From assembly GCA_020718585.1 (NCBI GenBank), contig DYRS01000003.1, positions 6,716 to 45,327 on the forward strand: 38,612 bases of DNA, written 5' to 3'. A program made the position numbers and the translations under genes. Below, in pieces: positions 11,274 through 20,069 of this stretch. Position 1 is the stretch's first letter, and the number at the start of each line of letters is the position of its first letter. A model generated the notes under the pieces. It made no database searches. It was not told where the DNA came from and saw nothing but the letters and a program-made list of their open reading frames with translations. The stretch is from Chthoniobacter flavus (GTDB lineage Bacteria; Verrucomicrobiota; Verrucomicrobiia; Chthoniobacterales; Terrimicrobiaceae).

Positions 11274-12557
11274 TCAGGCACTCCCATTTCCGATCCGCGC
11301 CCACGCTTCGAGGGCGGTGAGCGATCCGAAATCTGAGTAGAGCTGAAGGAGGCCCTGCTGCTGGCGGGCGGTGCGCATGAGCCGACGGTCCACCAAGCCA
11401 ACAAGCCACTCGCTGGCGAGACGGATGCGTCCGCCAGGGGTCGTGCCGGAGAGCGCACAGATCGCCTCGCGCGCCCGGTCAAGCGGAATGGATGGAAAAT
11501 ACGCGTTGACGAGCAAATCCCTGACCCGATCCGGCCCGACGAGTGCGAGATCGTTTTCGAGGCGAGCAGCCGAGAGGTTCCAGTGACGGGTCCAATACGG
11601 ATGCGAGAGGTTGCGAAAAAATTCCACAAAGCCGGTTTGGCCGGCGGACCGAACGGCGGCGCGGAGGCGCGGGAAGCCAACGGCGACGGCAGCAAGGGCG
11701 CCGAACCGGCGGTGCGGGTGGTTCGACGGCCGGATGCCGCTCAATTTCCAAATTTCGCGCGGGAGGACGAGCCGCGCGAGCGGGTCGCGAAGCGTCCACC
11801 AGCAATCCCAGAGTGGTTTCAGGTAGTCGCGGGTCGCATCGTCGGCCTCGTCAAACACGCGGGGTTGGAGGAATCCCGCGAGCCCGAAAAGGAGTGCTTC
11901 GCCGGTCGGTCCACCCGCCGCCCGGAGCCCCGCCCGCTGCGCGGCGAGCAGAAACGGGATCGCATTATTCTTGTAGCCGAGCCCGGCAGCGACCGCGTGG
12001 AAAAGCGCGGTGTCCGCGCCGTGCAGCGAGACCGCGCGCGCGTAGGCGGCGGATTTTGCGCGAAGCCGAAACTCCGCCGCCTCCTCGATCATCGCCTGCG
12101 CCTCGTCGTGCGCCACCGCTCCGGGGTGCCCGGCCAGCGGACAGGCCGGCCTTTCATCGAGCGCAAGCCGGGCCTGTGGGACTTCACAAAATTCCGACGT
12201 GCGCGCAAAAGCGGCAACCCGGGAGGTATTGACAAAGAGCTGGAGACGGACGCCGGTATACGCGGGGTTCGTTGCATGGCCGTGGCGCTCCCAGTCGCGG
12301 GCATCCATGTCCACCTCAAGATCGCCATCACATTCCGCCGTCCCGTCAAACCGGAACCGGACGCCCCTGAAATCCGGGCCGGCCTCGCGGTTCCAATCCC
12401 CAAAATGCAGGATCTCGACCCGCCTGCCGTCGGTCGTCGTCCAGACCGATCCGTATTCGCCCGCGAAAAGCCGTGCCTGGATTTCGATCTCCGGGATCCG
12501 TGCGGGCGGCGACTCGCGCACGGCCAAATCCCGGCGGGCATCGCCATACCGGATCAT
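11274..12557 (-). CDS. DUF2851 family protein
   Basis: EIEIQARLFAGEYGSVWTTTDGRRVEILHFGDWNREAGPDFRGVRFRFDG...DGDLEVDMDARDWERHGHATNPAYTGVRLQLF. Confidence 0.8.
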   Translation of the reverse strand: MIRYGDARRDLAVRESPPARIPEIEIQARLFAGEYGSVWTTTDGRRVEILHFGDWNREAGPDFRGVRFRFDGTAECDGDLEVDMDARDWERHGHATNPAYTGVRLQLFVNTSRVAAFARTSEFCEVPQARLALDERPACPLAGHPGAVAHDEAQAMIEEAAEFRLRAKSAAYARAVSLHGADTALFHAVAAGLGYKNNAIPFLLAAQRAGLRAAGGPTGEALLFGLAGFLQPRVFDEADDATRDYLKPLWDCWWTLRDPLARLVLPREIWKLSGIRPSNHPHRRFGALAAVAVGFPRLRAAVRSAGQTGFVEFFRNLSHPYWTRHWNLSAARLENDLALVGPDRVRDLLVNAYFPSIPLDRAREAICALSGTTPGGRIRLASEWLVGLVDRRLMRTARQQQGLLQLYSDFGSLTALEAWARIGNGSA

Positions 12558-14254
12558 GGACGAAGCTCCGGGAGCGGCGGCATCGGCAGCGGGGTCGGCT
12601 CGGGCGTCGGGGCGGGCTCAGCCGTCGCCGCAGGCACGGCGTCGGGCGTGGCGGCCGGGGCGGGAGTCGCCTCGGGCACCGGCCCGCTCAACCCGATCGG
12701 CTCGATCGAAGGCAAGGGAAGCGGACCGGTGGAAAAGCGCGCAAAGAGGTCGCGGCGCGGGCCCGGCGGCAGTTCGGATGTTGCCGAAAGTGCCCGTGCA
12801 GCAGCATCCGACCGCCTCCCGAGCGCGAGCAGGGTCTGGATGGATTCCAGATCGAGCCGGATTCTTGTTGCAGGGTCTTTGGCAAGATTCAGTGCCAGAT
12901 CAAAGCTTGCGAGGGCACCGGTCGGATCGCCCGCTGCGACCTGGGCCGCACCCAACGCCTCGACAAACATGCTCGTGCCGGATTCCCCGGCGGCGGCGCG
13001 AAGGTCGGATGCCGCCTGCACGGTATTCCCGTCCGCGCCGAGCACGATCCGGCGATAGGTTTTCCATGAGCTCGCGCTCGGGAGCCCGCCGACCGCACGC
13101 CACGAGGCATACGGACGGTAGAGCGGGTCGCCGACGACGACGCCCATCCACGAAAGTGCCTTCTGCGCCATCCACGCGCTCTCGGCAAGCGTGAACCCGC
13201 TCATCAGGCGGTCCTGAAAAACATCGAGATTCGCGGTGAGCGAGAGATACGGCTCATAGACATTGCCGAGCGTGGCGGCCGCGCCGCGCGCGAGCAGCGG
13301 ACCGCACCAGTTGGCGGTCGTGCTCCGCAGGGTGGACGCGCTGAACGAGTGGATATGCACGGCGACCGCGCCGGTCTGGAATTGGAACGCGGTGTCCGCA
13401 AACGGCCCGTCGGCCGCCCCGGCATACCATCCAAAATAAACCGCCGCATCGGTGATCGGGTATCCGGCGGGAAATGTCGGCGGCAGGTTGTCGAACAGGA
13501 CAGGAAGCCCCTGAGTCCGCATCAGGCCGGCAACGTTGGCCAGCCACTGGTCGCCCTCCGCGTAGCCGCCGGTCGTGATCCCGCGCGCGTCCACATACGA
13601 CCAGCCTTCGAGCCCTCCCTTCTCGGCGGCAACCGCATCGTCAATCATCGCCCGCACGATAAACGGCGTCGGCCCGTCGAGCCGCGCGGTCAGCAGAATC
13701 CCCGGATAAACCGGATTGTCCCGGATCGCCGTGAAGCGCCGAAAATACGGGTTGGGAACAACCCCCGCCGGCCCGGGCAGCGGCATTCCGAGCGTCGCCA
13801 GCTCGCTGTCCACCGATGCGTCATTGCGCGAGGCGATCTGCGCCGGCAGGTTCGGGATCGTATCCGATGGCGGGATCGCCGGGTCGTTGGCAATCTTCAG
13901 CGGGATGCCGCGCACGAGCGCGACAAAGCGGATTGTTGACGAGGTGACAACCTGCCGCCCGGATGCGTCGCGGCCCAACGTCCACCACCCGCGCTTCCGG
14001 AAAAGCGCGCGGAGCGGCGAGGCAATCCCACCCTCGTAGTCCGCCCGCTGGATCTCTTCGGCCGCCGGACAATCGAGCCCGACAACTTGGTTCGAGGGAA
14101 TGCTCCGCCGGTTCGCGTAATACTGGGCGAGGCCCTGCGAGTTCGGGTCGTTTTTATTGTAAACAACAAGCGTTGATGACGAGTCAATCCCATCCGCTTG
14201 TAAAGCGGACACCGCAAAAATCCCTGCCGCAAAAATCACCGCGTGCCACCTCAT
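12554..14254 (-). CDS. TIGR03790 family protein
   Basis: Signal peptide MRWHAVIFAAGIFAVSALQADG; TLVVYNKNDPNSQGLAQYYANRRSIPSNQVVGLDCP...EGGIASPLRALFRKRGWW. Stop/start overlap with the DUF2851 gene. Confidence 0.8.
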   Translation of the reverse strand: MRWHAVIFAAGIFAVSALQADGIDSSSTLVVYNKNDPNSQGLAQYYANRRSIPSNQVVGLDCPAAEEIQRADYEGGIASPLRALFRKRGWWTLGRDASGRQVVTSSTIRFVALVRGIPLKIANDPAIPPSDTIPNLPAQIASRNDASVDSELATLGMPLPGPAGVVPNPYFRRFTAIRDNPVYPGILLTARLDGPTPFIVRAMIDDAVAAEKGGLEGWSYVDARGITTGGYAEGDQWLANVAGLMRTQGLPVLFDNLPPTFPAGYPITDAAVYFGWYAGAADGPFADTAFQFQTGAVAVHIHSFSASTLRSTTANWCGPLLARGAAATLGNVYEPYLSLTANLDVFQDRLMSGFTLAESAWMAQKALSWMGVVVGDPLYRPYASWRAVGGLPSASSWKTYRRIVLGADGNTVQAASDLRAAAGESGTSMFVEALGAAQVAAGDPTGALASFDLALNLAKDPATRIRLDLESIQTLLALGRRSDAAARALSATSELPPGPRRDLFARFSTGPLPLPSIEPIGLSGPVPEATPAPAATPDAVPAATAEPAPTPEPTPLPMPPLPELRP

Positions 14255-14308
14255 GCCGGCGCGGCTCCGCATCCCGCTAAAAACTGAACACTGAAATCTG
14301 AGCACTGG

Positions 14309-17300
14309 TCAGGGTTGCCGGGTGTCGGCGATGATCGAAGCGAGGCGCTTGACGGCCGGGAACGAGAGCATCTCCGCCCACGCGCATTTGACCGGGACGA
14401 CCCGCGCCGAGGGCAGGATGGCGAGCCACGAGGCGGCGGCGTCGGGCGGAAAGTCCGAGGGGACGATGATCCGCGCGCGCAGGTCGCAGCGGACGAACCG
14501 GTAGCGGAGCCATGCCTCGACATGCGCGCGGGCGGGCTCGCCGGTCGCCGGAAACGGTTCAAGCCGCCCGTCGGGTTTCAGCCGCTGGAAGGCATTTTTC
14601 ACCGAGGCGAGCCAGCCGGCCGGCTGTTCGGTCTGCGGCGGCGGGGTGCCGATCAGGATCAATTGGGGGACCGGTCGCCGGGATGCCGCGAGCTGGCGGG
14701 CCATCTCAAGGGCGGCGATTCCGCCAAACCCGAACCCGCAAAGCTCGAACGCGAGCGACGGGTCTTCCTCGACGAGCGAGGTGATCCACTCGGCGGCAGC
14801 ACCTTCGACCGTGCGGTGGACGGCGTCCGGATCGCATATCCCGCGGGCGGTGAGCCCAAGAATTTTCCGTCCGGTTCCGAGTGCCGCGACAAAGTCGCGG
14901 TAAGTTTCCGGCACGCCGGATGCCGTCGGCACCAGCACGAGCGGCGAGCCGCCCTCCGGCTGGAGCACGCTGATCGGCACCCACGGGGTTGCGGCCTTCG
15001 CGGGTTTCGGGGGCGCAGCCTCGGCGGGTTTCGGCTCCAGATCGGGTTTGGCCTGCGGCATCGGCAGTTGGGACGCATCAATCCAGCCGCCGCGCGTGAG
15101 CGGCCACTCGGCGACCGCCGACGTGCCATCGACCTCGCAGGGTTCGAGTGCCCAAATGTGTGCGCCCTCGAACGCGTCGAGCACGTTATTTTCGGCAATG
15201 AGCGCAGCCGCGCGCGGACCGCGAGCGAGTTCCGGCGCGGCATCGCCCTCGAGGCGGATGTCTCCCGCCAGGCTCAGCCACGCGCGGAGACCGGATTCGA
15301 TCCCGCGCCGACCTTTGGGATTCGACAACGATTTCCAGCCAGGAAACCGCATGCGGAGGTGTCCGGCGTGACCCGGCGGCAGATCGTGGGAATCGTCGTC
15401 GGTGACCGCCACCTCGGTCCCGGCAACCGGCCGCCCGACCGCCAGCATCGCTCCGTCGGGGGTCGCGTCGCCCGCGATCCCCAGCCCGCAGAGACCGGAA
15501 AGACTGAAAAACGTGTGCGTACGGACGCGTCCGCCGGTGCAATGGTTCCAGACATCGAGCGCGAGCTTCGAGGCGGTTCCCATCTCAACGGCAACGATGC
15601 GCAGCGGAGACTCCGACGCATCGTCGCCGCGCGCCCAGCGGGCGGCCTGGTTGCTCCACTCGGGAGCGGTGAGCCGAAGATGGGTTGCCCCGGAATGCAC
15701 GGGGTCAAGGAGATCGTCGCCCGCAATCAACACGGTCCCCCCGCCCAGCAGAGGGATCAGCCACTCGTCGAAAAATGCGCCGCCGCCGGCCGCCGAGTGG
15801 GCAAGAAATGAATCCCCCGGCCAAAAATCCAGCATCCGCGCGCCCTCGACGGCGGCCGCCACAAGCGACTCATGGGTCAGTGCCCGAACAACCGGCGCGA
15901 TGCCGGCGAAATACCCGGGGAGGATCGCTGCAGGCGCATCCGGCTTGTTCGCGGCCCGGGGCACCTCGGCCAGCTCCATCGCATCCCACTCCTGGTCAAT
16001 GATGATCCGCCGCTTGGCCGAGGTGTCGAGCAGCGGCGCGCTCGCGCCGTCGCAAAAAACGAGCCCCGCATCGTGCGCTGCGAGAGCCGCCTCAATCCAC
16101 TCGGGCGGAGCGGCCGGATCAAGCGCAAGGCAGCAGTTGCCCGCCTTCCACGAACCGATCAGCGCGATCGCAATCCATGAAGACGGCGACAAAAACAGCG
16201 CGACATGCCATCCGCCGGAAAGCGAGGTATGCACGAGGTGCGCGGCCAGGCGGTCGGAAAGCGTGTTCAGCTCAAGAAACGTGAGCTCGTGTTCGCCCGC
16301 CCGGACGGCGACCGCGTTGGGGGTCTTTGCGACGTGTGCGCGGAACGCGTCGAGCGCATTGGCCGGGTGCTCGGCGGGGTCGGGCCCGCGCGACATCTCG
16401 CGGAGTTGCCTGGCCTCCGGCCCGGGCAGCAGCGGGATCTGCACGCGCGGCTTCGCCTCGTAGGATGCGAACCCCTGGATCAGACCGGCCAGAAGCTGGA
16501 GGAGTTTGCGCGCAGCCGTCTCGCTGCCAAGCGGGCCGTGGACACGCAGCGACAGGCCGGGACGGGCTTCGAGGAGGAGGAGGTCCGGACGACTCCGCGT
16601 GAGCTTTGCGTCAAAGTTGATCCACCGGGGGAGCGCGGTGTGGACGATGTCGTTGATGTCCGGACCGCCCCATGCAAAACCGCAGGTCAGGCCGCCGACT
16701 CCCGCACCGTCGGTCGTGAGCACCGCACCCGGCGCGATCCATGCGTTGGCCGCCGCGATCTCGTGCCTCGCACACGCGTCAGCAAGCCAAGTCTTCGAGT
16801 CCCACGCATGCACGACCGGCAGCCAGTTTTCAAAATACCCAACCGCGCGGTGCGAGCGGCGGACGTCGAACCGGCGGACCGTCGTGTTGCCAGTCGCGCC
16901 GAGCCGACGGAGAGCAAGCGCCCACAGCGACTCGACAACGACCCCCGGGTCAAGGGATTTGCAGGCTTCGGAAAACCGGGCGGCCTCTTCGCGTCCGAGA
17001 TCCCATGTCGCCCCGGCCGCCGCGCGCCCCGGCGGACGCAGGTGCAAAACCATCGGCTCGGGCACCGGCTTCAGGATCCCCGACCATGCCGAAGGCGAGC
17101 CGGTCGTCGCCGCGGCAGGCTCGTCGGCGGAAAGCGGACGCTCGAGCGCGATCAGCCAGTCGAGCATGAGCCGCGCGAACGAGGATTCGTCGAGCAGATA
17201 CGAGGGCACCGAAAGCAGGTAATGCGTCCCGCCGCCTGGCAGCGCGATCTCGGTCATCCGCACCGACCCGCGCCCGTCGAACGGCACGGCAAGATCCGCG

Positions 17301-17590
17301 GTCTGAAACTCCGCCCAGCGGCCCGGAACCTCCTCCGGCTTCGCCGCCTGCCAGTCGAGCTCCTCCCAAACCGTCCCGCCGGAATCCGCCACGAGCAGGG
17401 TCGCCCCGCCGCCGGGCGTGCCGGTGAGCCGCGCGCGAAGGATGTCATGGGTGGCACATGCAGTGTCCCATGCCCCCCGCACCGCCGCACGGTCCATCTT
17501 TTCCCCGAAGCTCACCGAGACCTGCGAATGCGCGTCCTCCCGGTGGAGAAACGCGGCGGACTGCATCGGATTGGCGGAAATCTCTTTCAT
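14309..17590 (-). CDS. NRPS-like protein: degenerate condensation - degenerate adenylation - degenerate thioesterase, no carrier domain (1093 aa)
   Basis: Start MKEISANPMQSAAF at 17590. C-like N-terminus (THYLLSVPSYLLDESSFARLMLDW), A-like middle (AFRAHVAKTPNAVAVRAGEHELTFLELNTLSDRLAAHL...ALIGSWKAGNCCLALDPAAPPEWI), TE-like C-terminus (PLVLVPTASGVPETYRDFVAALGTGRKILGLTARG...FELCGFGFGGIAALEMARQLA). Confidence 0.82.
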   Translation of the reverse strand: MKEISANPMQSAAFLHREDAHSQVSVSFGEKMDRAAVRGAWDTACATHDILRARLTGTPGGGATLLVADSGGTVWEELDWQAAKPEEVPGRWAEFQTADLAVPFDGRGSVRMTEIALPGGGTHYLLSVPSYLLDESSFARLMLDWLIALERPLSADEPAAATTGSPSAWSGILKPVPEPMVLHLRPPGRAAAGATWDLGREEAARFSEACKSLDPGVVVESLWALALRRLGATGNTTVRRFDVRRSHRAVGYFENWLPVVHAWDSKTWLADACARHEIAAANAWIAPGAVLTTDGAGVGGLTCGFAWGGPDINDIVHTALPRWINFDAKLTRSRPDLLLLEARPGLSLRVHGPLGSETAARKLLQLLAGLIQGFASYEAKPRVQIPLLPGPEARQLREMSRGPDPAEHPANALDAFRAHVAKTPNAVAVRAGEHELTFLELNTLSDRLAAHLVHTSLSGGWHVALFLSPSSWIAIALIGSWKAGNCCLALDPAAPPEWIEAALAAHDAGLVFCDGASAPLLDTSAKRRIIIDQEWDAMELAEVPRAANKPDAPAAILPGYFAGIAPVVRALTHESLVAAAVEGARMLDFWPGDSFLAHSAAGGGAFFDEWLIPLLGGGTVLIAGDDLLDPVHSGATHLRLTAPEWSNQAARWARGDDASESPLRIVAVEMGTASKLALDVWNHCTGGRVRTHTFFSLSGLCGLGIAGDATPDGAMLAVGRPVAGTEVAVTDDDSHDLPPGHAGHLRMRFPGWKSLSNPKGRRGIESGLRAWLSLAGDIRLEGDAAPELARGPRAAALIAENNVLDAFEGAHIWALEPCEVDGTSAVAEWPLTRGGWIDASQLPMPQAKPDLEPKPAEAAPPKPAKAATPWVPISVLQPEGGSPLVLVPTASGVPETYRDFVAALGTGRKILGLTARGICDPDAVHRTVEGAAAEWITSLVEEDPSLAFELCGFGFGGIAALEMARQLAASRRPVPQLILIGTPPPQTEQPAGWLASVKNAFQRLKPDGRLEPFPATGEPARAHVEAWLRYRFVRCDLRARIIVPSDFPPDAAASWLAILPSARVVPVKCAWAEMLSFPAVKRLASIIADTRQP

Positions 17591-17597
17591 GGTGTTC

Positions 17598-18290
17598 TCA
17601 GCCGGTTGGCTTTTTTCTGTATTGAGCAGGCTGGTCGAGGAGCCGCAGTTGAGGCTCGACATGTCCGTTTCGCAAGGCAACTCCATTGAACGAGTTTTGC
17701 TCGACGTCCTCGTTCCCCCACTGGTTCCAACCATCCCTCCGAAACCTGGCAAATAGTTCAAGGTAGGGTCCGGGGGAGCAGTCTTCAACGAGATCGTATA
17801 TTTCATCCGGCTTGCGGGAATGCTCGCGTTTCTGCGTGGCCAGCAAGTTGACCTGTCGCCTTCCCGGCTGCAGGGTCCTCATGCTTCCGCGCACCCCGAA
17901 AAGCACAAGTTCGGTGACGTTTCGGAAATAAAAACCGACGCCCCGGCCATCCGGCCCGGCATCTTTCCTGATTTTATACCAAACGAGATTGCTTTTGTAA
18001 GTGAACCCCCAAGCCTCCATCACCTTGAGGCCTTCCTGCAGAAGAGCATTGGGAACCCAGAGATAAAGGTGGGACTTTGCCGCCGCCAGGCGGGGAATCG
18101 GGAGCTCCATGATCTCCTTCAACTCCATTGTCGGGTATCGCAGCAACCTCTTGTGCTCGGGAGCCATCTTGCCGGTGCGATTCTGGAACTGCCACGGCGG
18201 ATCAGCAAGGATGGTCGAGTATCTTGCCGTTGCCTTTGCAAGCAAATCGTCGGCCGGGGTCGGCTCTGTGATGTTAACAACCTTCGTCAT
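17598..18290 (-). CDS. MT-A70 family adenine-specific DNA methyltransferase
   Basis: YSTILADPPWQFQNRTGK (DPPW motif), HLYLWVPNALLQEGLKVMEAWGFTYKSNLVWYKIRK, FRNVTELVLFGVRG, REHSRKPDEIYDLVEDCSPGPYLELFARFRRDGWNQWGNE. Confidence 0.92.
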   Translation of the reverse strand: MTKVVNITEPTPADDLLAKATARYSTILADPPWQFQNRTGKMAPEHKRLLRYPTMELKEIMELPIPRLAAAKSHLYLWVPNALLQEGLKVMEAWGFTYKSNLVWYKIRKDAGPDGRGVGFYFRNVTELVLFGVRGSMRTLQPGRRQVNLLATQKREHSRKPDEIYDLVEDCSPGPYLELFARFRRDGWNQWGNEDVEQNSFNGVALRNGHVEPQLRLLDQPAQYRKKPTG

Positions 18291-18867
18291 ACAGTGTGTT
18301 CTTAATACCAAAAACCAAAACCGGACAACCTCCCGCGCCTCCGCCTTCGACCTTTGGAAGCAGCTTCGACATGTGAGTGGTGGACTGCCCGTAGGAAGAT
18401 CCCCGACCGAGGTTGTTGAAAATCGTTTGCAGCGCATCCGAGCGGGTGACGATAATCCCCACGGAAATCACCCGAAGTTCGAAAAGCAGCCTAAAATTGT
18501 TCAAGTCCCTGTCATAGAAGGGATCTTTGTTGTTCCACTCGATTTCCAGAGCGACCCGGTTCTTGAAACAATCCACCGAATGGGTCGGACTGTTCACGGA
18601 CGCTCCGTCCACAACAACCGATGTGTCGAATTCCTTTTCGATCCAGCCCCTAGCTTTGTTGAGGTGGGTGTCAAACCATTTCGAAATCTCGGATTTGTTC
18701 CCCCCTTTTGTCGTGATAAAGGATTTGCAAAGCTTGAAGCGGGGCAAAACATCGCAGATATCGGACCACTCGCTTGGAAAATCTTTTTCGAGTATCGCGG
18801 AGGCGTGCCGCCATTCATGAATCTCGTAATGGTCTCGGATTTTCTGTGGCAGTGCGCTGATCGGCAT
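18274..18867 (-). CDS. BglII/BstYI family type II restriction endonuclease
   Basis: PTHSVDCFKNRVALEIEWNNKDPFYDRDLNNFRLLFELRVISVGIIVTRSD; D-x8-E-x-E spacing fits the recalled BglII active-site layout (D-x8-E-x-Q). Confidence 0.88.
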   Translation of the reverse strand: MPISALPQKIRDHYEIHEWRHASAILEKDFPSEWSDICDVLPRFKLCKSFITTKGGNKSEISKWFDTHLNKARGWIEKEFDTSVVVDGASVNSPTHSVDCFKNRVALEIEWNNKDPFYDRDLNNFRLLFELRVISVGIIVTRSDALQTIFNNLGRGSSYGQSTTHMSKLLPKVEGGGAGGCPVLVFGIKNTLYDEGC

Positions 18868-18935: not shown

Positions 18936-20069
18936 TTACAAGAGCGAGTCTGTGACCGCGCCGGTGGAGGCGGTCGAGACGTGGGAGGCGTATTTTGCGA
19001 GGACTCCCCGGCGGTAGCGGGGCGCAGGCTTTTTCCATTTGGCGAGGCGGGCGGCGATTTCCTTTTGCGGGATGCCGAGCGTGAGCTTGCGCGTGGGCGC
19101 GTCAATCGTGATCGGGTCGCCCTCGCGGACGACCGCGAGCGGCCCGCCCTCGAATGCCTCGGGCGTGATGTGCCCGACAACAAACCCGTGGGTGCCGCCG
19201 GAGAAGCGTCCGTCGGTGATGAGCGCAACATCTTTTCCGAGACCGCCGAGCGCGATCGTGACGGTGATCGCATTCTCGAACGCCTCCTTGCAAAAAATGT
19301 CCGACGGGCGAATGCCTTGCTTCAGAAGGTTGAGCACCGCCGCGCCGGCATCGCGGCAGTCGCGGACCTTGTGCTGCGAGACCGCGGCCTGGGCCGAGCT
19401 GTTCGGGAGGCTGAACCCGAGCGCCTCGATCGCCGAGGCCATCGTGTTCGCAGTATACATCCCGCCGCATGAGCCCGGACCCGGGATCGCGCACGACTCG
19501 ACATCGTGAAGTTCCTTGTCGGAGATTTTTCCCGCCGCATTTTGTCCGACCGCCTCAAAGACCGAGACGACATCAAGATTCCGACCGGCGAGGCATCCGG
19601 GAAGGATTGTGCCGCCATAGACGAAGACCGCCGGACGGTTCATCCGGGCGACCGCCATGATGCAGCCCGGCATGTTTTTGTCGCACCCGCCGATCGCGAC
19701 GAACCCGTCAAACCCCTGGCATCCGACGACCGTCTCGATCGAATCTGCGATGACCTCGCGCGAGACGAGCGAGTATTTCATCCCTTCGGTCCCCATCGAA
19801 ATCCCGTCGGAAATCGTGATCGTATTGAAGATCACCGCCTTCCCGCCCGCTGCATCAACCCCCAGCGCGGACTCGCGGGCAAGCTGGTCAATGTGCATGT
19901 TGCACGGAGTCACCATACTCCACGTCGAGGCCACACCGATCTGAGGCTTCGCAAAATCGCTCTCCTTGTAACCCGCCGGATACAGCATCGCGCGGCTCGG
20001 CGCACGGCTCCGACCGTCGAGGACAATCGAGGAATACGGGCGCATCTGCGCGGAAGATTTGGAACTCAT
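18936..20069 (-). CDS. ilvD: Dihydroxy-acid dehydratase, apparently internally deleted (377 aa versus about 555 expected)
   Basis: MVTPCNMHIDQLA, GGCDKNMPGC, PGPGSCGGMYTANTMASAIEALG and LITDGRFSGGTHGFVVGHITPEAFEGGPLA are IlvD motifs; AFENAITVTIALGG joins directly to LGKDVALITDGRF. Confidence 0.93.
   Translation of the reverse strand: MSSKSSAQMRPYSSIVLDGRSRAPSRAMLYPAGYKESDFAKPQIGVASTWSMVTPCNMHIDQLARESALGVDAAGGKAVIFNTITISDGISMGTEGMKYSLVSREVIADSIETVVGCQGFDGFVAIGGCDKNMPGCIMAVARMNRPAVFVYGGTILPGCLAGRNLDVVSVFEAVGQNAAGKISDKELHDVESCAIPGPGSCGGMYTANTMASAIEALGFSLPNSSAQAAVSQHKVRDCRDAGAAVLNLLKQGIRPSDIFCKEAFENAITVTIALGGLGKDVALITDGRFSGGTHGFVVGHITPEAFEGGPLAVVREGDPITIDAPTRKLTLGIPQKEIAARLAKWKKPAPRYRRGVLAKYASHVSTASTGAVTDSLL

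What the first reader, a model, noticed from the sequence alone, without database searches (positions are those of the whole stretch)
14309..17590. NRPS-like C-A-TE protein in which every catalytic motif appears destroyed
Seen in sequence: one uninterrupted 1093-codon ORF with recognisable condensation, adenylation and thioesterase folds. C motif HHxxxDG reads PSYLLDE (both His lost). The TE nucleophile elbow GxSxG reads GFGFG (Ser to Gly, codon ggg). The TE catalytic His region (recalled as GDHFxML) reads CAWAEML (His to Trp). The A-domain P-loop region (SGTTGxPKG) reads GYFAGIAPVVRALTHES, and I find no NxYGPTE-like motif and no A10 lysine. No carrier domain (no GGxS site) lies between A and TE; a Pro/Ala/Lys linker is there instead. 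The reading frame is intact over 3.3 kb, so selection for a non-catalytic role (scaffold, acyl/aminoacyl binding, sensor) is more plausible than simple decay.
Basis: partly seen in the sequence, partly recalled or inferred. Interest (0 to 1): 0.88.

Follow-up and report, generated by a model that had tools for sequence, protein, structure and literature searches.

The report
Conserved catalytically dead peptide-synthetase-like protein
A large protein built like a peptide-making enzyme (a nonribosomal peptide synthetase module), but with nearly every catalytic residue missing, has been kept intact in dozens of related bacteria, including a nematode symbiont with a tiny genome, which suggests it does an unknown non-catalytic job.

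Summary
Window 14309-17590(-) encodes a 1093-aa C-A-TE protein whose catalytic motifs are gone: both C-domain His, the A3 P-loop, A5, A7/A8, the A10 Lys, and the TE Ser, Asp and His. It is not a decaying copy. Orthologs occur once per genome in 33 genomes from four families of Chthoniobacterales (Verrucomicrobiota). They share one origin (support 100), none has an internal stop, and dN/dS is 0.07-0.29 over nine pairs. The TE nucleophile column is Gly in 32 of 32 copies. One family keeps a relic carrier domain without its Ser, so the ancestor was C-A-T-TE. Outside family f7 and the window itself, the gene lies 3-78 bp downstream of ilvD wherever measured. Two complete Xiphinematobacter genomes (about 0.916 Mb) keep it as their only detectable condensation-domain and AMP-binding-family protein, so it cannot be helping an active NRPS there. 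Best reading: a whole NRPS module exapted as a non-catalytic housekeeping binding or scaffold protein, perhaps tied to branched-chain amino-acid synthesis. The pseudoenzyme claim is strong; the specific function is inferred and weak. Structure prediction of the whole protein failed.

The parts
14309..17590 (-). pseudo-NRPS gene, 1093 codons plus stop
   Evidence: orthologs in 33 genomes
16376..17590 (-). degenerate condensation (C) domain, residues about 1-405
   Evidence: weak Pfam match here, Condensation 129-150 bits in f7 orthologs; boundaries approximate
17186..17206 (-). C-domain HHxxxDG position, reads PSYLLDE (residues 129-135)
   Evidence: alignment
15056..16375 (-). degenerate adenylation (A) domain with shortened C-terminal subdomain, residues about 406-845
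   Evidence: Pfam AMP-binding 7.7e-25; alignment; boundaries approximate
15887..15913 (-). A3 (P-loop) position, reads YFAGIAPVV
   Evidence: alignment
15077..15091 (-). A10 position, reads GGWID, catalytic Lys replaced by Trp
   Evidence: alignment
14984..15055 (-). Pro/Ala/Lys linker where a carrier domain would be; family f9 keeps a relic carrier here without Ser
   Evidence: alignment
14312..14983 (-). degenerate thioesterase (TE) domain, residues about 870-1093
   Evidence: Pfam Thioesterase 3.8e-12; low-confidence model resembles NRPS TE domains
14723..14737 (-). TE nucleophile elbow, reads GFGFG (Ser replaced by Gly)
   Evidence: alignment; Gly in 32 of 32 copies covering the column
14366..14386 (-). 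TE catalytic His region, reads CAWAEML
   Evidence: alignment
18936..20069 (-). ilvD (dihydroxy-acid dehydratase), upstream neighbour kept in most carriers; this copy lacks 187 internal codons
   Evidence: Pfam ILVD_EDD; comparison with VE2 IlvD

Best explanation
The gene encodes a pseudo-NRPS: a complete C-A-T-TE module that lost its catalytic chemistry in an ancestor of four Chthoniobacterales families and was then kept under purifying selection as a non-catalytic protein. Shown: one origin, one copy per genome, loss of nearly all catalytic residues, intact frames, low dN/dS in all three domains, a place directly downstream of ilvD in most lineages, and survival in the 0.9-Mb Xiphinematobacter genomes with no other condensation or AMP-binding protein. 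Inferred: the folds remain as binding surfaces, so the protein acts as a scaffold or ligand sensor in core metabolism and is expressed with IlvD. A link to branched-chain amino-acid synthesis is the most likely single pathway (about 0.3). The confidence given is for a non-catalytic, selected binding or scaffold role; the bare claim of a conserved pseudoenzyme family deserves about 0.9.
For: 33 orthologs with the same losses; monophyly with support 100; dN/dS 0.072-0.292 over nine pairs, and at most 0.263 in each domain of seven pairs; relic carrier domain in f9; ilvD adjacency with gaps of 3-78 bp in 19 loci; ilvD tree consistent with one gain; only PF00668 and PF00501 protein in both complete Xiphinematobacter genomes; family-specific invariant residues, among them the Gly that replaces the TE Ser.
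Against: No ligand, partner or phenotype is known. No usable full-length structure. In f7 the gene is not next to ilvD, and f12, f13 and G005 keep ilvD without it, so IlvD does not need it. Some residues of the old active sites survive in places: C-domain Asp in most copies, both C-domain His in G026, TE Asp in the two Xiphinematobacter copies.
Confidence: 0.72

Rival explanations
1. The protein has a new or migrated catalytic activity, so it is not a true pseudoenzyme (as the pseudokinase SelO turned out to AMPylate proteins).
For: Reviews warn that proteins called pseudoenzymes from motifs can have migrated residues or new chemistry (PMC10211241). Some family-specific polar residues are invariant: H123, D327, and nearly so D805.
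Against: No invariant new Ser, Cys or Lys that could rebuild a TE triad or an adenylation site appears among the family-specific residues; all three domains would have to be rebuilt.
Confidence: 0.15
2. A lineage-specific NRPS gene in slow decay, still open by chance.
For: All canonical motifs are lost, and the C domain of this copy is barely recognisable.
Against: dN/dS far below 1 in every pair, including Xiphinematobacter (0.176, interval 0.145-0.210); no internal stops in 33 genomes; kept in a reduced genome with 817 proteins and 4 pseudogenes (PMC4607532).
Confidence: 0.03
3. A helper or docking subunit of an active NRPS assembly line in the same cell.
For: C, A and TE folds are those of an NRPS module, and some carriers do hold other NRPS genes (G000, G003, G026, G055).
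Against: Of 16 carriers searched, only G055, G007 and G026 have a condensation-domain match outside this gene; both complete Xiphinematobacter genomes and the three Terrimicrobium-like genomes have none.
Confidence: 0.04
4. The ilvD neighbourhood reflects only shared expression or inherited gene order; the protein's role has nothing to do with branched-chain amino acids.
For: In f7 the gene stands apart from ilvD but survives. f12 and f13 keep redoxin-TPR-ilvD without it.
Against: The adjacency persists across three families whose other gene order around it has been scrambled.
Confidence: 0.5

Closest known systems
Terminal single-module NRPS of C-A-T-TE layout (EntF and AB3403 in the PDB; here G265, locus L146)
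   Same: Same order of domains and significant profile similarity over the whole length; G265 aligns from end to end at 522 bits
   Different: Those keep the A, T and TE motifs (G265: SGTTGKPKG, NTYGPTE, GGDSL, NGKVD, GWCYG with Cys nucleophile, LIDAY, SSHRD); the pseudo family has lost them
NRPS-like enzymes (A-T-TE or A-T-R)
   Same: Truncated NRPS architecture outside classical assembly lines (from general knowledge and abstracts)
   Different: Those are working enzymes with A, T and TE or R activity; this family keeps none of the motifs
Pseudoenzymes in general (reviews PMC5106787, PMC10211241)
   Same: Recognisable folds, lost catalytic motifs, conserved under selection
   Different: Described mostly for single domains such as kinases and phosphatases; here a whole multi-domain assembly-line module. 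The term search in PMC10211241 found no nonribosomal, polyketide, thioesterase or condensation case

Membership tests
Nonribosomal peptide synthetase (working) | Adenylation core motifs A3, A5, A7, A8 and A10 Lys | tested here: not met
   absent in every copy that covers them
Nonribosomal peptide synthetase (working) | Condensation motif HHxxxDG with the second His | tested here: not met
   PSYLLDE here; second His lost in all copies but G026
Nonribosomal peptide synthetase (working) | Carrier domain with GGxS site | tested here: not met
   absent here; relic in f9 reads GRTK
Nonribosomal peptide synthetase (working) | TE Ser or Cys, Asp and His | tested here: not met
   Gly, Gly and Trp here; nucleophile Gly in 32 of 32
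NRPS superfamily by descent | Significant sequence similarity to C, A and TE domains | tested here: met
Pseudoenzyme family | Loss of catalytic motifs shared by orthologs | tested here: met
Pseudoenzyme family | Purifying selection | tested here: met
Pseudoenzyme family | No catalytic activity in vitro | not testable with these tools
   needs a biochemical assay
Pseudoenzyme family | Fold retained | tested here: inconclusive
   full-length model failed at pLDDT 31; the TE model, pLDDT 53, resembles TE domains only roughly

The most novel reading that the evidence does not exclude
A whole NRPS module has become a dedicated non-catalytic housekeeping protein, retained for function even in a strongly reduced endosymbiont genome: a new kind of multi-domain pseudoenzyme, possibly a metabolite sensor or scaffold for branched-chain amino-acid synthesis.
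Probability: 0.55. Interest if true: 0.8.

Novelty: new variant of a known kind. Interest (0 to 1): 0.68.

Why it matters
Pseudoenzymes are well known for single domains such as kinases, but in the papers I could search I found no report of an entire assembly-line module inactivated in all its domains and then kept across several families of bacteria. Automated annotation is likely to call it an NRPS or AMP-binding enzyme and so overstate biosynthetic potential in Verrucomicrobiota. Its survival in Xiphinematobacter, where no other AMP-binding-family protein is detectable, argues for an important role and makes the question testable: a cultured relative carries it next to ilvD (G006, probably Terrimicrobium sacchariphilum NM-5, which is published as 4,751,807 bp in three contigs; PMC5532833).

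Tried and rejected
TE domain alone: pLDDT 53, pTM 0.57; matches NRPS TE domains with TM-scores near 0.5 and large rmsd, so it supports the fold only, not residue positions. Named relatives from genome contigs: one hit, Chthoniobacterales bacterium VE2. Literature: the paper searches and term look-ups turned up no report of a pseudo-NRPS and none of this protein. Rejected: recent decay (selection, distribution), NRPS helper as a general role. One flanking-gene dN/dS control (0.772) came from wrong coordinates in G009 and is discarded.

Full report
The ORF and its motifs. The minus-strand ORF 17590-14309 codes for 1093 residues with no interruption. Pfam recognises AMP-binding (7.7e-25) and Thioesterase (3.8e-12); Condensation is weak in this copy (0.25) but strong in some orthologs, up to 149.9 bits. 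Aligned with catalytic NRPS modules from the same class, the copy lacks the C-domain His pair (PSYLLDE), the A3 loop (YFAGIAPVV), A5 (TFFSLSG), most of A7/A8, the A10 Lys (GGWID), the TE Ser (GFGFG), the TE Asp (LIG) and the TE His (CAWAE).

Where it comes from. The genome is a 2.58-Mb draft in 345 contigs. Relatives place it in Chthoniobacterales: the one named ortholog record is Chthoniobacterales bacterium VE2, and G031 is one contig of 915,884 bases, the exact published size of the Xiphinematobacter genome (PMC4607532).

Distribution. A profile of 21 orthologs finds the family in 33 of 213 genomes held for the order: 23 in f1, four in f7, four in f9 and two in f2. Of the three f1 genomes without it, G014 has no ilvD match either and G024 has only a fragment of ilvD at a contig end, so the locus may be unassembled; G005 has ilvD with other genes beside it, a probable true loss, though that genome is 71% complete. 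Samples of 287 genomes of the class and 291 of the phylum show no member outside the order; the best outside hit, G265, scores 512 bits against at least 833 bits for the pseudo copies in that search. Copies split between contigs (G008, G010, G020) or cut short (G022) lie at contig ends, so these are assembly breaks. No member has an internal stop; the TGA noted for G001 and G002 appears to be the terminal stop read through, since one search reports none inside.

Shared inactivation. The TE nucleophile column is Gly in all 32 copies that cover it. A3 and A10 motifs are absent in every copy that covers them. The second C-domain His is lost in all but G026 (HHSLFDE). The TE Asp survives only in the two Xiphinematobacter copies. 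Family f9 retains some 60 residues that align with a carrier domain, where the GGHS site reads GRTK; Pfam does not call a carrier domain there, so this rests on the alignment. The ancestor was thus most likely a C-A-T-TE module.

History. A tree of 21 pseudo copies and 21 catalytic rows puts the pseudo copies on one side of one branch with support 100. The ilvD tree groups the carriers with f13 and leaves f12 and the other families outside, so one gain with losses in f13 and G005 is the simplest history; several branches of that tree are weakly supported.

Selection. Nei-Gojobori dN/dS for nine pairs is 0.072-0.292; a tenth pair (G047, G055) is saturated. Bootstrap intervals for seven pairs stay below 0.26, and C, A and TE taken separately reach at most 0.263. 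Flanking genes of the same genomes give 0.06-0.18 and ilvD 0.01-0.06. The protein is constrained about as much as ordinary neighbours and less than ilvD. Synonymous sites of the more distant pairs are near saturation, so those values are rough.

Context. In f1, f9 and f2 the gene lies directly downstream of ilvD on the same strand, with gaps of 3-78 bp in 19 loci measured. A redoxin-TPR-ilvD block is present without the pseudo-NRPS in f12 and f13. In f7 the gene adjoins the redoxin gene in three of four genomes and ilvD is elsewhere. In the window a BglII-type restriction endonuclease and an MT-A70 methylase sit between ilvD and this gene.

Xiphinematobacter. In both complete genomes the only PF00668 and PF00501 matches are this ORF. 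The symbiont has lost every other detectable AMP-binding protein yet kept these 3.6 kb. The published account lists 817 proteins and 4 pseudogenes, and the term search of its text finds no mention of an NRPS (PMC4607532). The symbiont is proposed to supply essential amino acids to its host (PMC4607532, PMC7857533), which would suit a branched-chain role, but that is circumstantial.

Mechanism. What is shown is a conserved pseudoenzyme. What it binds is inferred. Family-specific invariant residues lie mostly in the first third of the C domain (S25, G29, W75, W80, W92, L117, P118, H123), with D327, G702 and G954 elsewhere; no new catalytic set is evident. I favour a binding or scaffold protein in core metabolism, with the branched-chain link at about 0.3. 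The full-length model failed, and the TE model supports only the fold.

Noticed in passing
window 17598-18867 (-): A BglII-family restriction endonuclease (18274-18867, Pfam 5.8e-46) overlaps an MT-A70 methylase (17598-18437). The pair has lower GC (0.50-0.55 against 0.63-0.69 for the genes around it) and sits between ilvD and the pseudo-NRPS, a place that is empty in the 19 relatives measured: an R-M island inserted in this genome.
   Followed up: partly
window 18936-20069 (-): ilvD lacks 187 internal codons (residues 276-462 of the VE2 protein) in frame; the only other ilvD-like match in the genome is a paralog at 37-53% identity on contig C266. A true deletion or an assembly error.
   Followed up: partly
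L059, L060, L062, L063 (family f9 orthologs): A relic carrier domain is kept with an invariant GRTKP in place of the GGxSL site, so it too may be under constraint.
   Followed up: partly
L146:7915-11840 (+), genome G265: Single-module C-A-T-TE NRPS with a Cys-type TE (GWCYG) and a C motif of PHLLLDG, the best-scoring catalytic relative of the pseudo family; product unknown.
   Followed up: partly
window 11274-14305 (-): A TIGR03790 family protein (12554-14305) overlaps a DUF2851 protein (11274-12557) by 4 bp on the same strand just downstream of the pseudo-NRPS; neither has a match among the loci fetched around the orthologs.
   Followed up: no
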